A stretch of 64,000 nucleotides of DNA from Perkinsus olseni (Eukaryota > Perkinsozoa > Perkinsida > Perkinsidae). A program made the translations under genes and the position numbers. Shown one piece after another: positions 3,991 through 41,801 of this stretch. The number at the start of each line of letters is the position of its first letter. Positions within the stretch are counted from its first letter, which is position 1. Below the pieces are notes generated by a model, which did no database searches, was not told where the DNA came from, and was given only the letters and a program-made list of their open reading frames with translations. The DNA lies in NCBI GenBank assembly GCA_013115135.1, contig JABANP010000018.1, positions 62,001 to 126,000 on the forward strand, written 5' to 3'.

Positions 3991-6900
3991 CTACAGCAAT
4001 TGCGGTGCTTCCGCGACGGGCTTCTTTGCTTCGCTCCGCTTAGCCGATGACTTTTTCTGGCTCTGCTTCTGCTGCTGCTTCCTCTGTATCAGTGTGATGC
4101 GATCCCCCAGACTGAGTGCAATGCCCTGCGTTCTGGACCGTATCCTGACACTGCCGCTCAGGGAGCCGTCAGGATTCTTCTCTAGTGAGACGTTTGCTAG
4201 GGCGTCTTCACCGAAGATCGATCGGGCGTATCTGAGGATACTCGATCGAGCATCAAGGAGCAATTATCCACATTCGATTCCCTAGCGCTCATCCGGAGGT
4301 ATCTTAGGTTGACCTCGGGCGTAACATGGCGTCAAAGATTCCTTCATCACTTGCGAACTCCAGTCTTATTACAGGTTAACGGCCACGAACTTGGACTGTG
4401 GGCCGAGGAGCTTCGACAGGCTACTGGACTCATTCAGCTCCCTAGCAACTTCTGCCTTGACCAACGCCTGAGGAGGCACAACATTCGGATGTCGTGATGC
4501 GGCAGATCCAGACGCTGTCATATAGAAGTTCATTCTTCAATGTAACAGACGGAGAGTCGCCTAATAGTGTATCCTCTTCTCTTCACCTTCTTCGCAGTGT
4601 GAGTGTCCTCTCCTGACTTCACACCAGCACGAACCTAAAAATCAACGATACGTGGATCACTTCGCTCCGCTCAAACTGCCGCCATACCTCCCTCCTGCCA
4701 ACGATGCTCATATTTGTGTTCTCCATGAGGTTGGCCAAAAACTTCCGAGGCTCCACACTGGTGTTGGTGATATTGATCTTGTTCTCCCACTCAAATTCGG
4801 ACCTGTCGCCCGGAAAATTTCAAACATGCAGACGGAGCGAAGCAAAGATATGCCTTACCACATGGTTCTGAAGTTCAGCTCATTCACCCAGGCTCTCTCA
4901 ATGTAGTCCAAAATATCAACATGGAAGCTCGTTCAAAACCAAAGATTCCTAAAACGTATCTTTTCACCCGTAAAAAACTGCCTCAACCTCCCTCACCTTA
5001 TCGTCAGCTGACTTCATATCATAAGCGACATAACCGTAGATAACGCCGGTCTCAGTCGACGACACCTTGATCGTCGCATAAACAACAGCATGAGCACCCG
5101 GTGCCAGTGTAACACACTGAGGCCTCTCAACGATCTTCAAGTCACCTACAATCGATCGCCTGGGCGTGCGCTACTGCCATCCACTATTGAGCTCTCACCT
5201 TGAGTACTCAGCTCAACCTGAATGTTCTGCAGAGTCGTGTTCGTACGGTTGAAGACATTCAATTCCAACACCTGCAATCAACGACAAAAAAACAAGTATC
5301 GCTTCGCTCCGCTGAGAATGATCGCACGATGAACTTACCAAGTCGAAGCTGTGCACACGAAGGAAGCCTTCAACGTAAACAGGATCCGCCAGACCGGTCA
5401 TGGGCAATACCCTGAACAACCAATGACGTCCACAAAGAAGAGCTTCCTCTTCGAGTCCGCAGTGGTAACGGAAATGATTTTTCCTCTGCTGTGAACCCCC
5501 GCGCTGGAGACGACAGAAGCCCTCAGAACACGAGGAGACGCTGATGACAAGAACGAAAAGAGTGCAAATTTTGAACTGAGACCGACGGGAGTGTGTTGAA
5601 GAAATGAAAACTCATGATTCTATCAAAACTTACGTGCCGAACAAGACTCCCCGTAAAGAAACCCTCACGCTCCAACGAGTGGCCCCGAGCGTCGAGTCAA
5701 AAAATATCTCCACCGTACGCAGGCGGCGCGATCGACCTCTCTAAAGCCCCTACTTGTCCAGTCGTTCAGCAAATAATGCGCCAGTCTCGAATTCACTGGT
5801 CGGAGAGCCATCAGTAGTCGAGGCGGTTATCATGGAGCTGTCGTCACTTTGGAAAAGGTCACAGCCGCTGTCGTCACCATCGTCATCCACAGTAGCACCT
5901 AGAGGTGTGAAACGCCGTTCCCAGGGATCGAACTCGAGACCACCGCTCTCGGACAGGGGTTCTCGTCCGCTCAACTACCTGGCTTCAACTGTCTGAAGAA
6001 GACGAGGTCGTCCGGTTGTTTGCTCGTGTCCCGCATGGTGCTCTCCTCGGCATTAGCTGGGTCTTCTCCCGCTTCCAACTCCAGGACCTAACAAGAACCG
6101 TGAAATATCGCCGGTGGGAGTCGAACCCGAGACCTTCTGCCTACCTGTTTCAGGGCGTTCCTTGCCTGGTTACCCGATCCCCACTCGCGCTGACAACTGC
6201 GCTCGATCTGAAGTGGATAGAGGTACGCCGATGAGTCATGAATCGACGCACGTGGGTATCGAACCCGGGACCTACACTCTTGTTCGGGGCGACGATTGCC
6301 CTAACGCACTGAGTTAATCGACTGACAGCATCAGTATCGGTGACTCTGCCATTCACCGCTCCACTTGCCGATGCCTCAACGTCGCTCGCACCTGAGCAAA
6401 ACCTCATGATACGCCTATCCTGAGAGTATCTTGGGCTGAATCGTGCAAGATACAAATAAGGTCGACTCGAATCCGGCACGGCACGTGGCACGAATGCTCA
6501 CCTTCCTGTTTTGAGACGTTCTCACAGAGCCTCACCAGATTGGCAAGAAGGAAGCATATCTGATTCTTCAGAACCACAGGGCAGCTGTGAACTAAATAGA
6601 AACGTAAAATGAAAATTGCTCCGCTCCGTCGTCGGAGTAGCTGACTTACGAACTCCTCCCTTGACGAGCAGTTTAGTGGCAGTGACTCCGACCATCGTGG
6701 CCAATAGCGAGTCCCCCTCGGATATCAGTTTACCTGAACAAACAGAGCTCCGACTTGACCTCTTTTGTATCCTGTACGCTCAACCCAAAGATATCCCCCT
6801 AACTACGCATCGGGGTCTTCGACTCCTTATCATTCCTGTCCTCCTCTGCCGCACTGCCGCCATCATACCTAATCCAAATCAACTACCTTCAGCACTATCG

Positions 6901-9900
6901 GTCTGCTAACCAATCATACACTGTCTCGTTGGCGTATGTGCCGTCCGCCAATACCACCGTTCGGGTGGTGACCTTGGTGCCTGAAAATGGAAAGACGGTA
7001 ATCCATATCCACTTGGAGATGCGCCCATGATGTAGGACCAGTCCAAAGATCGGATAAACAAGATACTGAACCGTACAACATAGCCGGAGACTCGTGAATG
7101 AATGGTCTATCACGTTGAGAGTGATAGTCTCACTCAAGAGGCGAGTGCTATATGCGAAAGATGGAACGAGGTTACCATGGTACGCGATAGGTACGAAAGA
7201 TACTCTATCACGTCACGGGGTCGGCGCGGACTAAGAGACATCCTCACCAGTTTCGGCAGGCTGCTTCGTCTTCTCTTCCTTCTCTCCCTCCGTAGACTTC
7301 GGTTTGATCGGGAATGGCGACAAACAGTCGATGATCTCCTCCAGGACGCTCTGTGAGAGCTCCTTGCCGCAGTCTGATATCACCATCACCATCGTAACAC
7401 AATAAAATCTGCACGCATGCACAGCCCCGACATACCTGGTGAGAACTCTCCCAGCAACCAGAGGCACCCTCTGATCACGCGCGACTGGCGTATCTCATTC
7501 AAGCTCTCCGCCTAAAAAAGGAATCCTTCTCAACTGCAACAACCATGCTCTTACCAGTCGAGTTAAGATACTCTCACGAAGCTGTTCATGTCGGATGATA
7601 GTCTCTCTAACGAACATCACTATGTCCGCCGCCACCGCAGCCGAATCTGAGAATCATAAAACTCACAAACCCAACGCAGCAAAGGAAACAAGATCGGGTA
7701 GGCCAAAAGCCATGCCGCGAATTCCAAGTGAGTTGGCACGGCCCCATTCAATCGTGCAAACTTCATCCTGAACGCACGACGATCCTGCGCTCCTACTTCA
7801 ACAACATTCAAGGGAAAATCAAAGCAGCACTAGTCCGACGGGAGATGGAATGAGTGACAGTAGTACCGCGAATAGTTATACGACCACTACTACCAGATGC
7901 CTTAACATCAGTCTGCTCGGTAAGGATGTCCAACAAGACAGAGACCACTTGGCTGGCGTAGGTAGCATCACCAACACGTGTTGTGCTCAGGTGTAGGGCT
8001 CTTATGAGGAGACGGCGATACTGACAGGAGAACTGAGTGAGGCTCGGCTAGCACGACGCCTTCATCAAAAAAATTACGAAGTCACTCTGCGTACTTCGCG
8101 GCGATAAGCCCGCCATGAGGAACGCATTCCCCACAGCAGACGACCGGTGAAAGAATTTTTCGGAAGAACACGGTCCCACAAAATAACCGGAAACAACCAA
8201 TCAGCCGTACCTCGGTATTGCCCTCCGAAGTGCTGGTATCTTGTGTCTTGATAAGTTCCTTCTTCAACATACCAACAACGTCGGCAATGTTACGGCTGTT
8301 CACCTGCGTACACTACTAGCTAACCTCCACACCACCGACAGCAAAATTGAGCCGACCCAAAAACGATACATGATGCTCAGTCAATGACAATAAGGACAGC
8401 GGCTAGCCCCATTCATACCACACACACCGATCTGAGTCCGGCTACCCCATCCAAAAAAAACCGGAAAATCACAAAAAAATTTCTCGCTTTCTCAGTTCAG
8501 CTCACGAGAAAAGCTCAGCAGATCTCTTCACAACCACCGAACGGCTCCACAAACCTCAGTCACAAAATACAATTCAATTCCGCCAGCTGTCCAACGATGG
8601 GAGACTTGCTGATGACCAGTTCAGCAAAGGCTACTACCAGCGGTGTGCAGATATCCAGTATCTTCCTCCTGACCTCCACAGCAGGGCATGAGAGTCCCCT
8701 TAGCAAATCCATGACCAGCGGCTCCATCGCCTAGGATGAAGAACGTGGACACGCAGGTCGGGAGGGTCGATACTTGCCTACTACCTGTTTATAACGCTTC
8801 CTTAGGAGGTCTATTCTGTCCAGTACGATAAGCTTGACATTATTATCAGCTTGGGTTACGACCAGGTTAACATATGCCTCGGCAGCTGACAGCAGATACA
8901 CGCATGAAGGCGAGCAATCGAGGACAGAATAGCGGACAAGTGTACGAAGAAGGCTATGTTACATTCCTCAACTGGGGTCAAACCTCAGGTAGGTGTATCG
9001 TTCGGAAAGTCCGCCCGAAACTTTTTACTCACAGATTTATAGACAGGCGCCAATAATGTTCAAAACAATAAGGTCGTATATGAGATTCATCTATTCGTCA
9101 AAGAGTACACTAGCCCTGTCCAGTCTGTCGTCTTACCGGCGCCAATGGCGACATGAGACTTGGATAGAATAACCAGGGTGTTGGCGGTCTCGTACTGAAC
9201 AGCTGGGCTGGGGGACTCCCTCAAAGTGTATACAACCTGAACATCCCGCATAGTTTAGAACCTTCGACCTCACGATATACAACCCAGCGCATTAACCCAC
9301 TAAGCTGCCACACCGTAGAATATCCTACCTTCAAAAGCGCTCCCTTCACTTCCGGACGGTGCTTGTTGACCCTCCGAATGAGCTCGAGAATCACCAGCTG
9401 GCAGATATCACCCAAGTTGGCCACTTGGTCCTGAGAACACGTATTAGGTCGGAGACTGCAATACAGTGACGCATCCCACCTGCATCGAGAATACATAACT
9501 CATCGCCTTCTCCTCATTGTGGGGCGTCAACATCAGCATCAAAAACGCGTTACGCTTGGTCGACAGGTCGCCCTCGACCTAGACACACAACAAAGATACC
9601 ATTTCCCTACCGCAGCCAAGCAACTACCAATAATAAGTTCTCCACCTCTTGCGACGCAGTGGGCATCATCTCCTCTCCGAAGGTGCTCACAATGGCGTAA
9701 CTGCCCGGGCAAAAGTCTCTCCCGTAAAGAAGCGTAAAACCCCTCCGTTGTATACTACACGCACATCACAGCGTTCCTGCGGACGTAGCTGTGCCGATGC
9801 GTCAAATTACGAAGTATAGCCTCGGTAAGAGGCTCGAGGATACGGTAATACTTCAGCTTGCACAGCAACCGTAGTGTACCTACAGCAACGATGAGGATGG

Positions 9901-10505
9901 TGTCACGCGCCACGAAATTGCCCAGCCTACTTCCCCTGACGTATTCGTTGGGGTGCATTAGATCGTTCCGCAGGGCATTGACGACGAGTATCATCTCCTC
10001 CTTAAGACTGCCATCATCGTTGGTCTTCTCGCAAAGCTCCCAATAGCTGACGTGATGCCATCAGAATACTCGACAGTGCCCAATGAGAAATTTACTACAT
10101 CATCAATAGCTTCTTCACCCGATGGTCCTGCTTGGGCACGACGAACCTAAAGCGTGGAGATGATGAGAATACGTTCTGATTTAAAAATGGTAAAATCCAA
10201 TTACCGTATCATTGTCATGAGTAACCTTGGATATGACTCCCCATTGATCATTAATAATAGGAGCTCCTCCAGCACAGCAATCAGCTTATCAGAGTTACGC
10301 TGATTGGCCGCGCATGCCTGCCAAAACATCATCACTGCGCCACGAAATCCCTCATCTAACCACAGTACATTCTCTATGCGTTTTTGCAGCTCCTGCTGCG
10401 TCGGTGGTACCCCTTTGTCGTAGTAAATGAGTAGCGTGCATCCCTGGGGCCCTCCCGCCTGCTGCTGTTCGGTCGGACTGTTAGTGGCAGTTGGAGTGAC
10501 GGACA
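3991..10505 (-). CDS. COPB1: Coatomer subunit beta (COPI coat)
   Basis: Beta subunit of the COPI coat that drives retrograde Golgi-to-ER vesicle traffic. At least a dozen exons can be ordered by homology. N-terminal HEAT region: MLINGE-like segment near 10,210, [18 protein letters not shown] across 9930/9880, [11 protein letters not shown] at about 9,770, STKRNAF at about 9,550, [16 protein letters not shown] at about 9,420. Middle: a WLLGEF segment near 7,460 and a QPDDLVFF segment near 6,030. C-terminal appendage: [19 protein letters not shown] near 5,380, EFEWENKI near 4,790, and the end [18 protein letters not shown] followed by a Lys/Gln-rich tail at 3,991-4,220. The start ATG at 10505 precedes a Ser/Thr/Gln-rich leader. 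Introns are 51-119 nt. Two contain the TTTCGTGGCGC motif and four are tRNA-like. Exons between 7,600 and 9,200 and between 6,330 and 7,200 were only partly assigned. Confidence 0.93.
5899..5978 (-). repeat. tRNA-like intron (80 nt) in coatomer beta
   Basis: The intron begins GTAGTTGAGCGG, which resembles a tRNA A box (TRGYNNARNNG type) with the splice donor inside it. It contains GAGTTCGATCCC, a perfect match to the B-box consensus GTTCRANNC, 50 nt downstream. It ends CCTCTAG. Splicing restores the frame QLKPG into an acidic exon of the coatomer beta gene. Confidence 0.65.
6088..6184 (-). repeat. tRNA-like intron (97 nt) in coatomer beta
   Basis: Donor GTGGGGATC, acceptor TTGTTAG. Inside is CGGGTTCGACTCCC, with a perfect B box and flanking C/G bases able to form a T-stem, and an upstream GGTAACCAGG segment like an A box. 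The join gives [13 protein letters not shown], matching the conserved LSAKLEEE region of coatomer beta. Confidence 0.65.
6208..6322 (-). repeat. tRNA-like intron (115 nt) in coatomer beta
   Basis: The intron opens GTCGATTAACTCAGTGCG, very close to a tRNA 5' half (TTARCTCAGTGG). It has CCCGGGTTCGATACCC, a perfect B box with complementary flanks, 50 nt further on, and ends CACTTCAG. It lies 23 nt from the previous tRNA-like intron, so two such introns sit around one tiny exon (6185-6207). Confidence 0.65.
9237..9328 (-). repeat. tRNA-like intron (92 nt) in coatomer beta
   Basis: It contains TGGCAGCTTAGTGGGTTAATG (A-box-like) and, 40 nt later, GAAGGTTCTAAAC (B-box-like, one mismatch at the purine). 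Splicing joins VKGALLK to [18 protein letters not shown], which aligns with the coatomer beta HEAT region. Confidence 0.6.
9880..9930 (-). repeat. 51-nt intron with AATTTCGTGGCGCGTGA motif
   Basis: GT-AG intron of exactly 51 nt with no in-frame stop. It is confirmed by homology because the coatomer beta phrase [14 protein letters not shown] is restored when it is removed. It carries AATTTCGTGGCGCGTGAC. Confidence 0.8.
10318..10368 (-). repeat. 51-nt intron with ATTTCGTGGCGCAGTGA motif
   Basis: A second 51-nt, stop-free intron in the same gene. It shares the ATTTCGTGGCGC core with the intron at 9880-9930 but little else. Removal shortens a loop in the N-terminal exon and keeps the frame. Confidence 0.65.
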
Positions 10506-12210
10506 TAAGTGACCACCAAGAAGTATTTCCGAAAAATCTGAACTCGAGTTGAGAGTCCTTCCGACGTCCTTCCCGCAAGCGCGCTCCACTAACACGCAGA
10601 AGTGCGACCTTGCTAGTCTTGCACAATCTTGCATTTCCTCAACGCTGGACTCGTCACGCGCCACGAAATTGTTTTTGTCTCGGGATCGTGACATGCACTC
10701 TGTTGCAGTTGAGCTGGTCCCGCCATGGGTGGTGACATCTCCGTATTCAATAGAGACTACTACGATGACCGGAATGACGCGGTGGACACAGGAAGAGGGC
10801 ATCATGCTAGGCAAGGGTACTACTGTGGGGACGCATGCGAGGCAGTGAGGATGGTGATGGTAGTCTTCCTGTGCTGTATGGCTGGATTGCTGCGAGAGAT
10901 GGTATGGTACTGGAGTCGTAGACAAGGCAAAGGGGCATTTTTATTGGCGCAGAGTACTAGCATTAGCTGGAGGAACAGCGGAGTGGGCGAGAGGCCTTCG
11001 TTCGACGCAATCAGTTTAATACGATCGTTAGCATGCAGTAGAACGGACTGCAGACAGGCCAGTAGGTCCTATAGGGGCCGCGAAGCATATACTTAAGTAT
11101 TATAGAAAAAACCAACAGCTGCACTCCAGTCTATGTGTGAGTGTAGCCGTTATTTTAGGATTGGGGTCAGCTGTGATCTCACACTGTGAGATCCTCGGCG
11201 AAAATGTATGACGACTTCCACTACAACCCACGCATGGTTGTTACAACCAGGTTGTAACATATGCCACGCACCTTTCGCCAGTACTTTCATCATGACGCTG
11301 TTTCTTCTCCGTCAGGACCTCGGTGGATCATCGATCGCTTCCACCGGAACTGCGCGCGATAGGAAGGTGTCGGAAGTCCACCATTCTGCGACGATCAGCG
11401 GTAGCAGAGCGATGCTAGATTCTCACTAGCTATACCCCTCCCCTTCTTCAGGTTCTCATACTCAAGCATATGCGTGCCTGTCCACGACGGTGCATCGACC
11501 ACCCGAGGTGCGGTCAAAAGTGCCTCGTTCTGGACCAGGAACTGTAGTAGTCGGTGGAGCGTGGACCTTCCGTGCTTCCTGTGGTTTCGGTTCGCGTTTA
11601 GAAAGCTAGCGGGAAGCTCCTTCTTCTGCATCATCGCTGAGTACACGGATTCCGTGGCCTGTTTTTTTGCTTCGCTCCGCTAGAGATTCGTGTGCCTCAG
11701 GTACAACTCGGTGCCTGCGTTTTCCTTGCATGGATGCTGCGAGTGTCTTAACCCGCTGGTAGCCGCCCGGTCGGAACTCGACCATAAACGGGAGTTGTTG
11801 GCCGGGCCGCCGCTACCGGTGCCCCTCCACGAAATTCAAGGATACCTTCGGGAATGTGTCCGGTAATAAGGGAGCATGCGTCTCTCTTCACGTCCGGATG
11901 CGCGGTGGTGTTTCGCTGGAGATGGAGCCGTGATTGGGTTTTTTTAATAGAATAAGGTTCAGCAATGATACAGCATGTTTACGAGACGCGAGTCTGTGTG
12001 CAGCTTTCTTTAATGAAACTAGGATTCCTGTATTCATCGGCGTTCGGCTTACTCTTATGTGCGTAGCGATGGTGACGTGGCGGTGATGATCGGCGTCAGA
12101 ACAGCTGTATGATTTCGGTTCTTCGGCAGTGCGCGGGAAGGGTGACTTGGGTTGGTGTCTCTGCGGTAGTGGAGGGCAGAAGAAGGGTATGTACTCGTTG
12201 GGTTTATTAG
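10506..12210. other. Weakly annotated stretch upstream of coatomer beta and cyclin
   Basis: No gene is recognised. It contains CTTGCATTTCCTCAACGC (10628-10645) and, right beside it, the intron-type word CACGCGCCACGAAATT (10655-10670). It also holds perfect hairpins at 11175-11193 and 11240-11258 and the GCTTCGCTCCGCT motif at 11669-11681. Upstream exons of the cyclin gene could lie here. Confidence 0.35.
11395..11660 (-). CDS. Possible exon of an unrecognised minus-strand gene
   Basis: The minus frame reads as an ordinary soluble protein: a basic NANRNHRKHGRSTLHRLL helix, then VVDAPSWTGTHMLEYENL. There is no simple-repeat bias. No family is recognised and no flanking exon could be joined with certainty. 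A minus frame at 11,888-12,292 also looks open, but it overlaps the cyclin exon and is probably its shadow. Confidence 0.3.
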
Positions 12211-13903
12211 GTACTTTTCTTGCCACAATGAGCTCATAGTCATCGCCACGGTGTATGCCTGTCGATTTGTTGAGAACGTATGCATGCGCCATTGGAATTG
12301 GCGTATTATTGTTGCCGTAAGCGTCTTTTTGGCCTGTAAGGTAATACAGTGGGCTCGTTATCGTGAGGCCGCGGGTTCTATTCCCATGCTGGACATTTTC
12401 GCCCCACTTCCTTGTCTCAGGTGTGGGAAGACTATTGTCTTTTTCTCTCCAATCTGCAAGACTGTTTTATCTACCTTAGCAAGTGGGCATCAATTTCGTG
12501 GCGCGCGAAGATGAAAACTTCTATCAGATGCGGTCTGATTCAGCTCGGAGCCTATGGCGGCGGACCGCCACTGTACAGGCTCAAAAAGCTTGAGGCCTTC
12601 GCATTAGCCGATATACTTCAGTGGAATGTGAATATTCAGTCACACGAGTAAGCGAAAGGTCCCCGGTTCGAATCTCTGCACGTTCTATTCTCCCCTGTCG
12701 CAGATACTATGAATTTTATTTCTGCTTGGAGCAGAGCAGCATAGGGACTTTTCAGGGAAGTACTCGGAGCGTCGGCGGTCTCCGGAGACTATCTACTACA
12801 CCGGACGCGGTCGGTCATCGGGCTGCCTTCACGTTTGGTGTCCTCTGTGCCACGGAGCCCCTCGCATGGATAGTTGGGCTGTCATGCGTGAATTTCATAT
12901 TGCCCTCAGGACTCCGTTATATTAACAGCAAGTGGCGATGCTTTGGTAGTGTCCAATGTTGACCGGTGAGTATCGCACTCGGAAGATTCTCAGTCAGTGA
13001 ACCTTGTAGGCCACTAACTTTTTTTAGATCTTCTCGGTACTCAACACCCGGCACTACTCGGGACCCGTCAGCCCGCGTGTCGCCGGTATCTCTGCAGTCC
13101 CTGATGCTGCGTCGTCGAGGCAGTAGGTCGAGAGTAAGAAGAATCGTATTACTTCCCTTGGTCGTAAGAATGCATTACTCGCTCAGGTTTCGGCGGGTCA
13201 TAGGTTGGTAGTGCCAGATGAGTATCTTCGGCACGCATGCACAGAATCTATAGGCTGCGCAACTCGGCCGGTGAGTGTTTATCACCTCTATCTTCCACTA
13301 CTCCTCACACCTCGACAGGCGTTCTCGGCCTGTTGATCACGCGAGCCAATGGCTCGGAGCCATCATCAGTGCCCTGTGTTCTCCTCTTGAATGGTCTCAA
13401 AGTCGCATGAATCGAAGTTACTGATCTTCGTTTCTTCCTGAGAGCTTAGCGGGAAGATATGAAATTGATCCGCATCTCCTAGAAGAAGCCGACGCATTCG
13501 AGGCATGCTCTCGCTGCCAACGTTCTGCCGCCATCAAGTTCTTTGCGACCTGTCATTTCCAATTTCGGTTGAGCTCCGCTGTCTCATTCTCAGGTGCGCA
13601 AGTCCTGGGTGGACAGATGTCCTTCGCTATGTGACCCGACAGCAGCTGAGTTGCGACGCCGTTCGTTGGACAAGGGGAATCCTTTCGTAGGCAACTGGGG
13701 TAAGCCAAAAGTCCCGGGTTCGACCCCAGCAGCCTGTGTTTTCACCACATATCGTTGCGTATATCGAAGTCTTGTTCAGCTCATTCCCCGCCAGCCGAGC
13801 CTATGGTGTCTCTTCGAGTCCTCTCTACTAATGAGGGCATGGAGGCGTCGCCGAAGGCTAAGAGGAGCGTGGGGATGCTGCCTGGAAGAGCCGCTTGCTT
13901 GTA
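12211..13903 (+). CDS. Cyclin (cyclin Y / PHO80-like cyclin box)
   Basis: Regulatory partner of a cyclin-dependent kinase. The exon starting after TTTATTAG (12211) encodes NELIVIATVYACRFVEN and then WNWRIIVAVSVFLACK. Across the intron 12341-12420 it continues VWEDYCLFLSNL. This reproduces the cyclin-box core in which NWR..L.....LA.KVW.D is diagnostic. Further exons are separated by introns 12483-12527, 12621-12703 and 13687-13779. Downstream the protein becomes Ser/Arg- and Pro-rich (12,750-13,130) and ends in GRAACL at 13903, so the tail is long and probably disordered. The N-terminal exon or exons were not found. Joins between 12,780 and 13,590 are uncertain, so a second gene could start there. 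Three introns are tRNA-like. Confidence 0.72.
12341..12420 (+). repeat. tRNA-like intron (80 nt) in cyclin gene
   Basis: Exactly 80 nt, as in the coatomer intron at 5899-5978. It contains AATACAGTGGGCTCGTTA and then CCGCGGGTTCTATTCCCATG, a B-box-like arm with one mismatch. The splice is fixed by the cyclin motif LACK|VWEDYC. Confidence 0.6.
12483..12527 (+). repeat. 45-nt intron with AATTTCGTGGCGCGCGAAG motif
   Basis: GT-AG, a multiple of three, no in-frame stop. It carries the same near-palindromic word as introns in coatomer beta, LUC7 copy 2 and TXNDC9. Removal joins FIYLSK to CGLIQLGAYGGG. Confidence 0.6.
12621..12703 (+). repeat. tRNA-like intron (83 nt) in cyclin gene
   Basis: Contains GTCCCCGGTTCGAATCTC, a perfect B box, preceded by a CACACGAGTAAGCG segment, and ends CCTGTCGCAG. 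Confidence 0.5.
13687..13779 (+). repeat. tRNA-like intron (93 nt) in cyclin/downstream gene
   Basis: Donor GTAGGCAACTGGGG, then AGTCCCGGGTTCGACCCCAG (perfect B box with pairing T-stem), acceptor CTTGTTCAG. Removal joins SLDKGNPF to AHSPPAEPMVSLRV. Confidence 0.6.
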
Positions 13904-34749: not shown

Positions 34750-37660
34750 TGGACGAGCACACCTCGAACTCAGGGCCGCACGAGTAGGCGCTGCTCGAGG
34801 AGATTCTGCCGTCGAGCCCGGCCACTCTAACCTGATAGTCAACATGGGAGTCTCCCATTGAGAGGTCAATGCACGATAGCCGTCGGCACCAGGCGACCAG
34901 TCAAAGTGTGTAGTAGAGTTCCATATGGTCATATCGAGCGCTATCTGAAGGCTCTACCCCAATCCACCCAGACACGGCCAACTCACCGGCTCGGGAAATC
35001 CCCATATAGCCGACCCAGCCTCCGCAATGAACGTGTTCGTCATGTCCAGGTGACCAGGCCTCTCACAGGCAGACTCTCTCCCTCTCCCTGCACCACCATG
35101 GCCGTCCTCGGGTTCGTTCATTCCGACCTGAAAGTTAACTATTGAGCTACCCTTGGCCGAGCTTCAGTGCATGACTGAAGACTTTCCCTGCGACCACTTC
35201 TTCGCTCTTGCATCCGAGAGCCCGCATGATCCTGCCGATGTGCAGCTCGTCAACTCTGCCTCCTTCAAGTATCGACTGGACGGCCTCGCCGACGTCCTTG
35301 CCCTCTTCTGAAGGCACCATCATTGACCCCACCATAGGGCACGATCAGCGAATAGCATTAAAGGCATTATCCAGTGCCCACACCGAGCCCGACCTAGTGT
35401 TATGTTCTTGCAAGACGTGCCCCTCCTCATAGCATTCCGGAGGCGGATTAAGCCGCTGTGAACAGCTGCAACTGACTTGTCTTTCACGGCCCTTTCAAGC
35501 GTCGCAAGTGCCGCTGCGGTGCTGTGCCTGGTCAAAGCGGCAGCTCAGGTGTTGAACGTTTACTCCTTGGGCGCCGAGGTCCTACCGGCGATAATGAGAG
35601 CCGCTCAGCAGTGCAGTCGCTCGTGCTGCTCTTTCGAGACTCTCACATGCTTTCACTCCAGGCTGAGGAGAAACGAACAACTATTTTACGTAAGTTCTCG
35701 CCGAGGAGTCTCCGCAGGTGAACTTTTGACCGTTCAAGTGGCACTTAATAATCACTAAGTGCTCCGATTCGGAGCCTCCTGAACGCTGCAGAAAAGCAAC
35801 GGCCAGGTTGTCCACGCATAAGTTCTACTTAATTGTGAACTGAGGGTCCAGATTTGCATGGGCCCGCATCGAACGGGGCACATCGGCCGAGTCGCACAGG
35901 CCGACCTGGTCGAATGGATCAAATTTCAGAGACAGCGTGTCCGAGTGGTTAAGGAGGTGGACTAGAAATCCACTGGGCTCTGCCCGCGCAGGTTCGAATC
36001 CTGCCGCTGTCGTTTTCTTTGAGCGCTTCAGCCACTGTCCCTACTCTAGTCAACATGAATCGCAATAACTCCTCGGAGTGATCAAAGTTTGTTTGATTCT
36101 TCACTGCAACCACGTCAGGCACGTCGCCGACCTGCACACACAACAAACCGGCACTCCCATAAATAGCTTCTCGAGTTGCGATTCATGCTTGTCCGAAATT
36201 CGAGAAACTGATAAGTGGCCTACTATCCCGGCCACGAGAGAGAAGACCTCATTCTCAAGTTCATTCCCCATAGCAAGGCCGCCACATCCTCCCGTTCGCT
36301 CAGTCAACGATGAGATACCCACTAATCGTGCTTGGCTCTTCTCGGTCTTATCCGAGCCCTCCAAGACTCTTGTCTGCGAAAGCTCTGTCTCAACTTGCCG
36401 GAGCAGACTATCAGGCAAGCGGCCAAGATGTGTAAGACACTCTGCCCGGACTCCCTGAAAGGGATCCAGACTAGCGATATCAGTGACGCATCTACACTGC
36501 TCTCACAGGATTGCGCTCCTCGAGTGATAACAATACAGCATTGATAAATGCATCAGCGGCGCCGTCGAGATCTCCTTCACCCAGGCAGCATAATCCGTGC
36601 CAGCGCTCCCTTTTAGCGTTGTACGGCAGCTCAGTGACGAGGGAACTGACACAGGGTTCGCCCAAACATGCGAAAACATTCGAGAATTGGGGAGGTAGTT
36701 ATTCAGGTGGTAGTCCATCGGTTAACCCTGCGCTTGTTCTTATTTAGTCCCCTCTGAGCACTGCGACAGAGGGCGGCAGCGCTGCTAGAACGTCACTGAT
36801 CGGAGGCACTACCGCGCTCTTCTGATGTCCTCGCGGGCTATTAGTTGCCATACCACTCTTTCCGCATAAGCCGGGTGATTCAGGGGGTACTCGATGCTGA
36901 GCATTGCCTCTCGCCACATGTCCTCAGCGGTGTCTAGGCTGGACAGCGGTCCCACATTCATATTAACGGAAATATAGCCCACAAGTGCCCTGCGGCTATA
37001 AGCTCCAGCTATCGGTGAATCGAGCGTCCGAATGAGTTCCCGCGAACGTGCAAAAAGCTAAGCGTACAAATCAAGTAGAGCTATTCATTCGAACGACCGA
37101 ATCCAACAGCGTTGAGGATTCAAGTGTCGACCGCTCGGATTCGGTTCGCAATGGTGTCTACCTCACGCGTCCACCGACGCCCAGAGAGCGGACGGGCACT
37201 CTTGAGTTACCTATCCCGGCAGACCCAGATTCTGGGTCCCAGAACAACCTCACAACGCAAATGACGACAAAGGCACACTATCAGAAACAAGAATTCACCA
37301 TAATCGTGATTTGTTCTTTCCCGGGTCGTCCTGTGGACCCTGCATCGGTCGGTTCTCGGGCTCTTTTGGTTTCCTTTTTCTAATTTCGGCCACAACTCTC
37401 GTCAACTGCTTCAGCATCTCCTTAACATTCTCGTTCGAAGGGCCCCAAAGGTGTGCCGACAGGTTCACGCCCTTCTCCATCTGAAGATAGTTCCGGTCAA
37501 CCCAACCTCGCCCATTCCTTGACGAACTCCTGCGTTCATTGGGCAACATGAACGAGGACGCCCTTCGAAGCAGCAACAAACAAGCCGGAAGGCCGCCTTA
37601 ACCGTCCTGCCGGTAATATCGTCTACATCGACTGTGGATGAGATCGATTTCAAAACCAAG
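34750..37660 (-). CDS. Unrecognised multi-exon helical-repeat protein, minus strand
   Basis: A chain of protein-like minus-strand exons: SISSTVDVDDITGRTVKAAF (37,640 down), NLSAHLWGPSNENVKEMLKQ (37,450), AEDMWREAMLSIEYPLNHPA (36,900), LCCLGEGDLDGAADAFINAV (36,560), LDPFQGVRAECLTHLGRLPD and a long helix to 36,150, VGDVPDVVAVKNQTNFDHSE (36,100), ACESLERAARATALLSGSH (35,630), HSTAAALATLERAVKDKS (35,500), EEGKDVGEAVQSILEGGRVD (35,270), then an acidic-to-Gly segment near 35,100. The VRAE..THLGRL phrase looks HEAT-like. A faint resemblance to Integrator subunit 4 was noted, but it is too weak to name. Exon limits are approximate, and two genes could be merged here. A tRNA gene lies on the opposite strand within it. 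Confidence 0.45.
35931..36012 (+). tRNA. tRNA-Ser (anticodon AGA)
   Basis: Complete class II tRNA. The acceptor arm GACAGCG pairs with CGCTGTC (36005-36011). The D arm contains GAGTGGTTAAGG, an A box. The anticodon stem GTGGA/TCCAC encloses CTAGAAA with anticodon AGA. A long variable arm (GGGCTCTGCCCG) is diagnostic of Ser/Leu. The T arm is CAGGTTCGAATCCTG, a perfect B box. A T-rich run (GTTTTCTTT) directly after is the RNA polymerase III stop. It reads opposite to the surrounding protein gene. Confidence 0.97.
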
Positions 37661-40024: not shown

Positions 40025-41801
40025 CTAATTAAACTCATCATCGTCGTCCACTTCCACACTCCCCTGCACGGCTCGGTTATGCTCAGCGCCGAAAGTACCT
40101 GAGATGCAGCAGCGACAGGCTGCCGGCAGCACCACCCTCATTCTCCTCGGCCGAACCACTCCACGGAATTATTGGGAAAAGCATATTCCTGAGATGCCTT
40201 CTCCGCATTGGAACTTACAATCTCTACAAACGCCCCGAGTACGACGGACGGCTATGAGTATCACTACAACAATCGGCAACGAGAAAGGCATGACATGGGC
40301 GATTGCACGTCGACCGATCTGACCATTGACCGGACGCCTACGTTCAAGGTTGTCCAGCTCGCCATCAGACACCATGTCATTCTCGTAGAGTACCTACTAG
40401 GGCTCCTCATTGATAATTTCGAGGCGCGCGAAATACCTTAGCCAGACTGAGAGTGGTGATATCTTCGCCATCTATACAGCGCAGACCCTCGAATCCTACG
40501 ATGTGATATACCTGAAAGGCCAGCGTAGTCTTCCCCACCCGCACGAGGGGCGGCATGAGCTCATGCGACCCGGCGACCGGCTACTGAAGTTGGTTACACG
40601 AAGAGACTCGAGGACGCTATCGAGTATTTCTGCTGCAACATGCTGTCCATACGACCAGATGCACGAATCAAGCTGAGCCCCTCATCCCGGAGAAGAGCGA
40701 TCTACGTATCCGTTCTCGGCGGAGACGAGTCAGTCAGTCATCCAACCTCTTCACTACCGCTATTCCCTTGACGAATAAGACCGTGGTCGGCAGCACTCTG
40801 ATCCGGAGCCTCTCCACGAAGAACGGCGCCTTCTGGGCGTCCAACTACACAACAATCGCGGATATGCCGTCCTTCTGACCATTCTCTAGGTTGATGGAAA
40901 TCAGCGGCCAATACCCGAATTGTGGGCACGTGAGTGAAAGCATTGTAGAACGTTCTAATTTCTCACCCGAGCCATCTTGATGTCAAGTAGTGATGGCGCT
41001 AGCAGGCCGAGATGCTTGTCAATGACTCTGCATTTTCTAAAACTGCGATGATAAAAGTGCACCTGAGGGCGGCCAGTCTCCCAAGACCAAACTTCGGCGA
41101 TCTCCTCGAGTCTGTGGCCAGGCGGCGATGGTCGGTTGATACAGTATGGCTGCCTCCGGTACTACTATAGCTTTATCGCTCTTCGTCACAGTGTCCAGAA
41201 ACTCAGCCTCAGTGATCTCATTCAGCTCGCCATGCCCCTTGGCACGGTTCTCAGCGGCTGCCTTGTGTTCGGCCTTCAGTTTAGCGAGCCCTACCAATAG
41301 AACGCTATACACGATGAGCGCTCATCCACTCTTGATTTCTTGCTAGTTGCTCTCTCAAGGGAATTCACATTCAGACTAGTCTTAAACTAATCGGCAGACT
41401 GAATCGAGCGAGTTTCTGCCGCCAAGAATTGAACCCACGACCTCCAAAATTACGAACCGTTTATCGCACGAGTATAACGCCGTCCCTGAAGGATGATCAC
41501 CGACGTTGAGCGCGGATAGCCTCGAGGTCCAAGTCCGTATTCCCCGCTTTCTCATTGTCCCTGTCGGAATCGGTTTCGTCAGAAGACTCTTCCCCTTTTT
41601 TCTTGCCACTCAGCAGCGCGACTTGAGGGGGCAGTGAGTACTAAGATCACCACGCAACAGCAGCAACTCCGCACAGGTTCGACCCCACCAGCCCACATCT
41701 ATTACCTTCATCCCGAACCCCGTTGTATCCCCTGCTGATGATGCCTTCATCTTGTCATTGATCGCTTGCTGCATGACCATATCCGCGAAGTAGCCCGCCA
41801 T
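40025..41801 (-). CDS. TXNDC9: TXNDC9 / phosducin-like thioredoxin-fold protein
   Basis: TXNDC9-type proteins modulate the CCT/TRiC chaperonin in actin and tubulin folding. Exon 1 (from 41801) is MAGYFADMVMQQAINDKMKA. After a 65-nt intron comes SLPPQVALLSGKKKGEESSD, then DLDLEAIRAQR, AKLKAEHKAAAENRAKGHGE plus LNEITEAEFLDTVTKSDKAIV, VHFYHRSFRKCRVIDKHL (the family's HFYR.....C...D.HL motif with a single Cys and no CxxC), APFFVERLRIRVLPTTVLF, VYHIVGFEGL, and the acidic end VQGSVEVDDDDEFN at 40025. Intron 40394-40436 is only 43 nt and holds TTTCGCGCGCCTCGAAA. The intron around 41291-41500 contains a tRNA-like T arm. Confidence 0.85.
40394..40436 (-). repeat. 43-nt intron with TTTCGAGGCGCGCGAAA motif
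   Basis: The smallest well-supported intron in the window. Nearly half of it is the near-palindrome also found in introns of coatomer beta, cyclin and LUC7 copy 2. Removal joins TLSLAK to VLYENDMVSDGEL. Confidence 0.65.
41420..41500 (-). repeat. tRNA-like segment in TXNDC9 intron
   Basis: On the gene strand the intron contains GTTATACTCGTGCGATAAACG followed by GTCGTGGGTTCAATTCTTGG, a perfect B box (GTTCAATTC). Its arrangement is like the T arms in the coatomer beta and cyclin introns. It lies in a longer intron (about 210 nt). Confidence 0.45.

What the first reader, a model, noticed from the sequence alone, without database searches (positions are those of the whole stretch)
5899..13779. 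Introns built on tRNA-like sequences
Eight introns or intron segments in three genes (coatomer beta 5899-5978, 6088-6184, 6208-6322, 9237-9328; cyclin 12341-12420, 12621-12703, 13687-13779; TXNDC9 about 41420-41500) carry the same arrangement on the gene strand: an A-box-like 5' part and a T-arm-like GTCnCGGGTTCGAnnCC block. Six have a perfect GTTCRANNC B box. In five the intron is little more than the tRNA-like unit plus splice signals (80-97 nt). Splice sites of several are fixed by protein homology. This suggests intron gain from tRNA genes or tRNA-derived SINEs that bring their own GT and AG, a route I do not know to be described in this lineage. Random B-box matches are expected in 64 kb, but not with this shared layout inside introns.
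Basis: partly seen in the sequence, partly recalled or inferred. Interest (0 to 1): 0.85.

Follow-up and report, generated by a model that had tools for sequence, protein, structure and literature searches.

The report
Introns built around tRNA-end-like cores
In the shellfish parasite Perkinsus olseni, many short introns are little more than a repeated ~34-base unit that looks like the tail end of a tRNA gene, placed in either direction, which points to an unusual way of making introns, although the gain itself has not been seen.

Summary
The window is Perkinsus olseni (393 of 393 aligned residues identical). Most of the claimed introns hold up, but what they share is only the 3' end of a tRNA gene: A-GGTC, T-arm/B-box, C72-A73, T-run. 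An A-box half is no commoner than in controls; in two cases it is exon. The ~34-bp unit recurs genome-wide: 321 near-consensus sites versus 0 reversed; 167 versus 0 by a second pattern, with tRNA-like spacing in 75 of 88 sequences examined. It lies in short introns in both directions (23 sense, 21 antisense of 44 predicted), anchored by homology in coatomer, kinesin, isocitrate dehydrogenase and adaptin genes. Some anchored introns are 49-57 nt, so little more than unit plus splice signals. I found no T-stem covariation, acceptor pairing or target duplication, and no clear constraint between haplotypes. Two other short words recur in introns likewise. Best reading: an introner-like family of tiny repeat cores, one resembling a tRNA 3' end. 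Not shown: insertion, mobility, splicing in RNA. All 8 introns compared between haplotypes are shared.

The parts
9237..9328 (-). Coatomer beta intron, 92 nt, with tRNA-like block AGGTCGAAGGTTCTAAAC; the one case with a clear A-box-like 5' part
   Evidence: Splice sites fixed by P. olseni protein P0001 (393 of 393 aligned residues); shared with contig C719; no Rfam tRNA match
6088..6144 (-). Coatomer beta intron, 57 nt; unit A44-A73 at 6106..6135
   Evidence: Homology GSGNQARNALKQ|VLELEA with P0002 and P0068
6208..6275 (-). Coatomer beta intron, 68 nt as read by eye (GTAGGTCCCGGG...CAG); unit 6244..6273
   Evidence: Upstream RLTQCVRAIV is exon by homology; the aligner itself put the 5' splice site at 6251, so the donor is a judgement (also chosen by the local score); coordinates
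5899..5978 (-). Coatomer beta intron, 80 nt; unit 5913..5942
   Evidence: 5' splice site by homology FFRQLKP; 3' site by reading frame; the aligner placed the 3' site elsewhere
12341..12420 (+). Cyclin-like gene intron, 80 nt; unit 12366..12395
   Evidence: Cyclin_N match on the exon frame ends at this point; donor and acceptor; shared with C719
12648..12703 (+). Cyclin-like gene, likely intron 56 nt (GTAAGCGAAAGGTCCCC...CAG); unit 12657..12686
   Evidence: not homology-anchored; shared with C719
13700..13779 (+). Cyclin-like gene, likely intron 80 nt (GTAAGCCAAAAGTCCCGGG...CAG); unit 13709..13738
   Evidence: not homology-anchored; shared with C719
41399..41453 (-). TXNDC9 region, possible intron 55 nt read by eye; unit 41414..41443
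9880..9930 (-). Coatomer beta intron with a different short word, CAATTTCGTGGCGCG
   Evidence: Splice sites; word
5272..5338 (-). Coatomer beta intron with a third short word (GCTTCGCTCCGC, antisense)
4803..4858 (-). Coatomer beta intron with the third word (sense, one mismatch)

Best explanation
P. olseni carries a dispersed repeat of about 34 bp whose sequence is that of the 3' end of a tRNA gene: variable-loop A44-GGTC, T-arm/B box, nine variable bases, C72-A73 and a T-run like a Pol III terminator. Copies sit in unrelated genes, in either orientation, and form the core of many short spliceosomal introns; the splice sites lie in the few variable bases on each side. The family behaves like introners with a very short core, and is one of at least three such short intronic modules in this genome. 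Shown: the unit, its ends, its genome-wide excess, its place inside homology-defined introns, both orientations. Inferred: that insertion of the unit into exons created the introns, and that the unit descends from a tRNA gene 3' end, perhaps through a Pol III transcript. Not shown: how it moves.
For: Genome-wide excess with 0 in reversed-pattern controls and fixed spacing in 75 of 88 sequences examined. Among 20 loci picked by the spacing pattern (13 of them for one subfamily), similarity in most pairs starts at about A44 and stops at the T-run, with unrelated flanks. Homology-anchored host introns: coatomer, AP-1 gamma and AP-2 alpha, kinesin and isocitrate dehydrogenase, whose spliced peptides align without a gap across the junction. 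Unattended census: T-arm unit in 7 of 57 canonical introns of three genes versus 0.2 expected in shuffled introns (one of the 7, AP-2 alpha 2617-2652, is poorly anchored); coatomer introns 5899-5978 and 6208-6275 add two with boundaries set by eye. Of 85 elements, 44 sit in a predicted intron at null p<=0.2 (17 expected, p 8e-11), 23 sense and 21 antisense (the score was trained on coatomer exons, where 3 of the 85 lie). Length: 33 of 51 motif-free introns are <=120 nt (median 53, shortest 43), and ten motif introns in homology-defined genes are 49-92 nt: the 49-57 nt ones cannot be old introns that took in 34 bp unless they shrank later. Haplotype divergence of the core is like that of the rest of the same introns.
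Against: No presence/absence difference seen: 8 of 8 motif introns that could be compared are shared between haplotypes. No target duplication or terminal repeat. Similarity does not reach the intron ends. Bases 66-71 vary too much for one young family. 41 of 85 elements have no predicted intron at p<=0.2. T-stem pairs do not covary, so tRNA ancestry rests on sequence and spacing only. In one tandem-paralog comparison read by eye, the same intron position seems to have the unit in one copy and none in the other, which also fits replacement inside an existing intron.
Confidence: 0.6

Rival explanations
1. The unit is a transposable or repeat sequence that landed in introns that already existed; introns are simply where it is tolerated.
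For: No polymorphic copies; six of ten motif introns are 68-92 nt, longer than the 53-nt median of short motif-free introns; a tandem paralog seems to have a motif-free intron at the same position.
Against: Four of the ten are 49-57 nt: kinesin 49, AP-2 alpha 50 and 50, coatomer 57; L095 may be 46 (by eye). They leave too little for a previous intron, the shortest motif-free one being 43 nt.
Confidence: 0.22
2. The unit is a functional DNA site, such as a B-box bound by TFIIIC (like extra-TFIIIC sites), kept by selection in introns; orientation does not matter for a DNA-binding site.
For: B box with conserved flanks and fixed spacing; orientation-free; bases 66-71 vary while the B box does not (where the B box was part of the search pattern). 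Core differences between AP-2 alpha haplotypes (9 of 232) are fewer than in motif-free introns of the gene (56 of 873).
Against: The rest of the same motif introns differs at 12 of 246, close to the core's 9 of 232 (small numbers, two related haplotypes). Roughly 8,000 copies by extrapolation.
Confidence: 0.1
3. The introns derive from whole tRNA genes or tRNA-derived SINEs.
For: Coatomer intron 9237-9328 has an A-box-like stretch before its block; three of 29 profile hits have an A-box match of 8 of 9. Rfam gives weak matches to tRNA-like models in 20 loci: tRNA once (E 6), mascRNA once (E 2.4), tmRNA end twice (E 0.36 and 1.3), all far below gathering scores.
Against: No A-box excess over controls, no acceptor pairing, no T-stem covariation, no tRNA match at the window sites, aragorn 0 of 22.
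Confidence: 0.05
4. Chance or composition.
For: Plain 9-base B boxes are hardly enriched in the window.
Against: Zero hits for reversed patterns against 321 and 167.
Confidence: 0.01

Closest known systems
Introners / introner elements (Gozashti et al. 2022, PMC9860276; Farhat et al. 2021 Amoebophrya, PMC7789003)
   Same: Similar sequences in introns at unrelated positions. In the passages seen, some introner families lack TSD and TIR, another recruits both splice sites from the insertion site, and opposite-orientation insertions are allowed for.
   Different: Here only a core of about 34 bp is shared, the intron ends are not; the core resembles a tRNA gene 3' end. A whole-word search of the 2022 main text found no Perkinsus, SINE or tRNA. 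Its method asks for similarity that begins near the intron-exon boundary, so this family could be missed (inference).
tRNA-derived SINEs
   Same: B box and a tRNA-like 3' end with a T-run.
   Different: No A-box excess, no shared 5' tRNA half, no body, no target duplication.
Extra-TFIIIC (ETC) sites (recalled)
   Same: B box without A box, dispersed.
   Different: Thousands of copies by extrapolation, many inside short introns, no clear constraint.

Membership tests
Introner | Sequence-similar introns at non-homologous positions in many genes | tested here: met
   Core shared across coatomer, AP-1 gamma, AP-2 alpha, kinesin, IDH and others; for the core only
Introner | Similarity begins at or near the intron ends | tested here: not met
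   Similarity limited to about A44..T-run; flanks unrelated in most pairs
Introner | Recent gain shown by presence/absence at an orthologous site | tested here: inconclusive
   8 of 8 introns shared among haplotypes; other species not available
Introner | TSD or TIR (found in many, not all, families) | tested here: not met
   Direct and inverted flank matches equal shuffled pairs over 86 elements
tRNA-derived SINE | A box and B box at tRNA distance | tested here: not met
tRNA-derived SINE | Pol III-like 3' end / T-run or tail | tested here: met
   T at 56-73% in the four positions after base 73; spacing
tRNA-derived SINE | Target site duplication | tested here: not met
tRNA gene or pseudogene | Cloverleaf by covariance model or ARAGORN | tested here: not met
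   0 of 22 by aragorn; one weak RF00005 hit (18.5 bits, E 6) in 20 loci; none at the window sites
ETC / TFIIIC site | Occupied by TFIIIC without Pol III | not testable with these tools
   No chromatin data
ETC / TFIIIC site | Sequence kept by selection | tested here: inconclusive
   Core 9 of 232 differences, rest of the same introns 12 of 246, motif-free introns 56 of 873

The most novel reading that the evidence does not exclude
Fragments of tRNA gene 3' ends, or of their Pol III transcripts, have been inserted thousands of times, many of them into coding sequence, in either direction, and turned into ~50-nt introns: a tRNA-derived route of intron gain that needs neither a transposon end nor built-in splice sites, in a genome where at least three such tiny modules have together shaped a notable share of introns.
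Probability: 0.35. Interest if true: 0.88.

Novelty: new variant of a known kind. Interest (0 to 1): 0.72.

Why it matters
How new introns arise is a long-standing question. A genome with perhaps thousands of introns around one recognisable ~34-bp core, in both directions, can be tested directly against its sister species. If the core founded the introns, the size needed for an introner drops to a few tens of bases and tRNA gene ends join the list of sources. It also warns annotators: unspliced antisense units read as peptides such as GIEPGTS or RTRDLS in open frames.

Tried and rejected
A simple gene finder failed (in one search it recovered 0 of 29 coatomer introns); I replaced it with a spliced aligner against homologues and a local intron score with a random-position null. 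The local score is weak: for kinesin (L017) and isocitrate dehydrogenase (L040) it chose other splice sites than those confirmed by protein alignment, and it did not find the CDK-like introns (L031). Full tRNA elements, acceptor-stem pairing, T-stem covariation and target duplications were tested and rejected. DNA search with coatomer introns found only self or self and C719. Searching L012 found no haplotype copy. eIF4E (L032) was not used as an anchor: its frame allows more than one splice solution, some non-canonical. AP-2 alpha intron 2617-2652 is poorly anchored (2 of 20 flanking residues identical). A tandem paralog pair was looked at by eye and is ambiguous. I found no description in print in paper searches (open-licence full texts only); passages of PMC7789003, PMC9860276 and PMC9399869 were seen, the rest only as search listings.

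Rows dropped before counts: 7 near-duplicates of 44 exact sites (at least one further copy, L067+ of L031-, stayed in); 5 real tRNAs, contig C719 and 4 profile hits scoring 16.4-18.5 (two of them reverse readings of palindromic hits) before the set of 29 (the 18.6 threshold was set after seeing scores); L093 (kept). Whole-genome counts include haplotype copies. In one search I copied 88 distinct sequences from the 100 listed places of 167; at least three more distinct ones were left out by oversight, all of the common length. In one search the intron length lists were typed; two of the 51 motif-free ones have a non-canonical end.
Full report
What the window is. The window is part of contig C90 of a 61.5 Mb genome. 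Its coatomer beta gene matches a partial P. olseni protein (399 residues) in 393 of 393 aligned residues, so the organism is Perkinsus olseni (Perkinsozoa).

Check of the observation. A spliced alignment of the coatomer gene to homologue P0002 (a transcriptome protein, organism not shown) gives 29 introns, a few of them doubtful. One claimed intron (9237-9328) has splice sites fixed by the P. olseni protein; 6088-6144 is fixed by two homologues. For two of the claimed introns the supposed A-box part encodes conserved protein (RLTQC, and GSGNQARNALKQ before VLEL), so it is exon. Contig C719, a second copy at about 94% over most of the overlap, carries the blocks at 9237-9328 and at all three cyclin sites.

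Not only here. In 244 kb the extended block occurs 20 times with at most one mismatch against 0.2 expected (one is a real tRNA, two are duplicates on C719). Over the whole genome, GGTCCCGGGTTCGANTCCC with at most one mismatch occurs 321 times, the reversed pattern 0 times. A second pattern with free T-stem and free spacing to CATTT gives 167 against 0; of 88 distinct sequences taken from its list, 75 have exactly 9 bases between the B box and CATTT, the tRNA distance from base 62 to 72, out of 13 spacings allowed. Profile hits in 224 kb number 29 after removal of five real tRNAs, which extrapolates to about 8,000 in the genome; the sampled loci were not random, eight of them having been chosen for adaptin matches.

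What the unit is. In 37 exact sites the conserved stretch runs from A44 (81%) to a T-run after base 73; base 65 is C or G in all, base 72 C in 76%, base 73 A in 70%. In 66 sites pooled, the only positions more than five bases before the block with a signal above 0.1 bit are seven and eight bases before it (weak A or A/T), where GTA donors often lie. Among 20 loci chosen by the spacing pattern, 13 of them for one subfamily, most pairs share about 33-37 bases and then nothing; one pair is a near-identical copy and a few pairs run longer. T-stem pairs 49:65, 50:64 and 51:63 form no more often than in shuffles (34 of 75 versus 36.8, 39 versus 40.1, 27 versus 33.5); acceptor pairing and A boxes do not exceed controls; ARAGORN finds 0 tRNAs in 22 sites; Rfam finds a few weak tRNA-like matches in 20 loci (tRNA E 6, mascRNA E 2.4, tmRNA end E 0.36 and 1.3) and no tRNA at the window sites. 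So it is tRNA-3'-end-like in sequence and geometry, not a tRNA and not a SINE with A and B boxes.

Where it sits. Spliced alignments and protein matches place it inside introns of coatomer beta, AP-1 gamma (antisense, 72 nt, flanks 17 of 20 identical to P. marinus) and AP-2 alpha (sense 50 nt, antisense 50 nt, antisense 85 nt; a fourth poorly anchored), kinesin (49 nt; peptide contiguous with KIF7 across the junction) and isocitrate dehydrogenase (69 nt read by eye; peptide contiguous over 58 residues). A CDK-like gene has an antisense unit before YRPPELLL and a sense unit after a later exon, and a ubiquitin-hydrolase-like gene has an antisense unit; these two are read from the translation with family names recalled. 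An unattended census finds the unit in 7 of 57 canonical introns of three genes, 4 sense and 3 antisense, against 0.2 in shuffled introns; two further coatomer introns have boundaries set by eye. A local intron score puts 44 of 85 elements in an intron at null p<=0.2 (17 expected), 23 sense and 21 antisense, and 25 at p<=0.1; the other 41 are unresolved.

How it most likely works. Motif-free introns in the three genes have a short class (33 of 51 at most 120 nt; median 53; shortest 43), and ten motif introns in homology-defined genes are 49-92 nt. An intron of about 50 nt that contains a 34-bp unit has little room for a previous intron. The simplest reading is that the unit, inserted either way round, became the intron core and that splice sites formed in the flanking bases. 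Insertion itself was not seen: all 8 introns that could be compared between haplotypes are shared, and there is no target duplication. In AP-2 alpha the core differs from two other haplotype copies at 4 of 116 and 5 of 116 bases, the rest of the same introns at 5 of 123 and 7 of 123, motif-free introns at 22 of 436 and 34 of 437, exons and other columns at 86 of 1686 and 76 of 1685: no clear sign of protection, though weak constraint cannot be excluded.

Wider picture. Two other short words behave alike: CAATTTCGTGGCGCG (276 genome-wide, reversed 0) and GCTTCGCTCCGCT (985, reversed 3). In the 57 introns near-matches occur in 2 and 3 introns, expected 0.05 or less. So P. olseni introns appear to contain several families of tiny modules, and the T-arm unit is the longest of those seen.

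Comparison. Introners are the closest known kind. Passages of PMC9860276 and PMC7789003 were seen. Some introner families there lack TSD and TIR, and one recruits both splice sites from the insertion site. The present family differs in sharing only an internal core, in the core's resemblance to a tRNA gene end, and in its small size. It fails one usual introner feature (similarity at the ends), so I say it works like an introner family and do not file it as a proven one.

Noticed in passing
window 9880-9930 and genome-wide: A second short intronic word, CAATTTCGTGGCGCG: 276 exact copies genome-wide, 0 for the reversed pattern.
   Followed up: partly
window 5272-5338, 4803-4858 and genome-wide: A third short word, GCTTCGCTCCGCT: 985 copies genome-wide, reversed 3; near-matches in both orientations in introns.
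   Followed up: partly
window about 17055 and 12286: A 34-bp stretch present in the window but absent from the C719 copy holds GCGCCATTGGAATTGGC, also found at 12286: a possible insertion polymorphism of another short unit.
   Followed up: no
L025 reverse strand, query bases 4153-4337: A repeat of about 185 bp in a longer AP-2 alpha intron, with about 40 other places listed at 78-96% identity.
   Followed up: no
L012 reverse strand, 1566-2006 and 8224-8664: Tandem paralogous genes whose last exon is 98% identical over 441 bases while the sequence before it is unrelated, with the unit in one copy only.
   Followed up: partly
C767, C120 and C149: The AP-2 alpha gene exists in three copies at about 94-96% identity, as expected of separately assembled haplotypes.
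   Followed up: partly
window 35931-36012: A tRNA-Ser gene, the only tRNA found in the window.
   Followed up: yes
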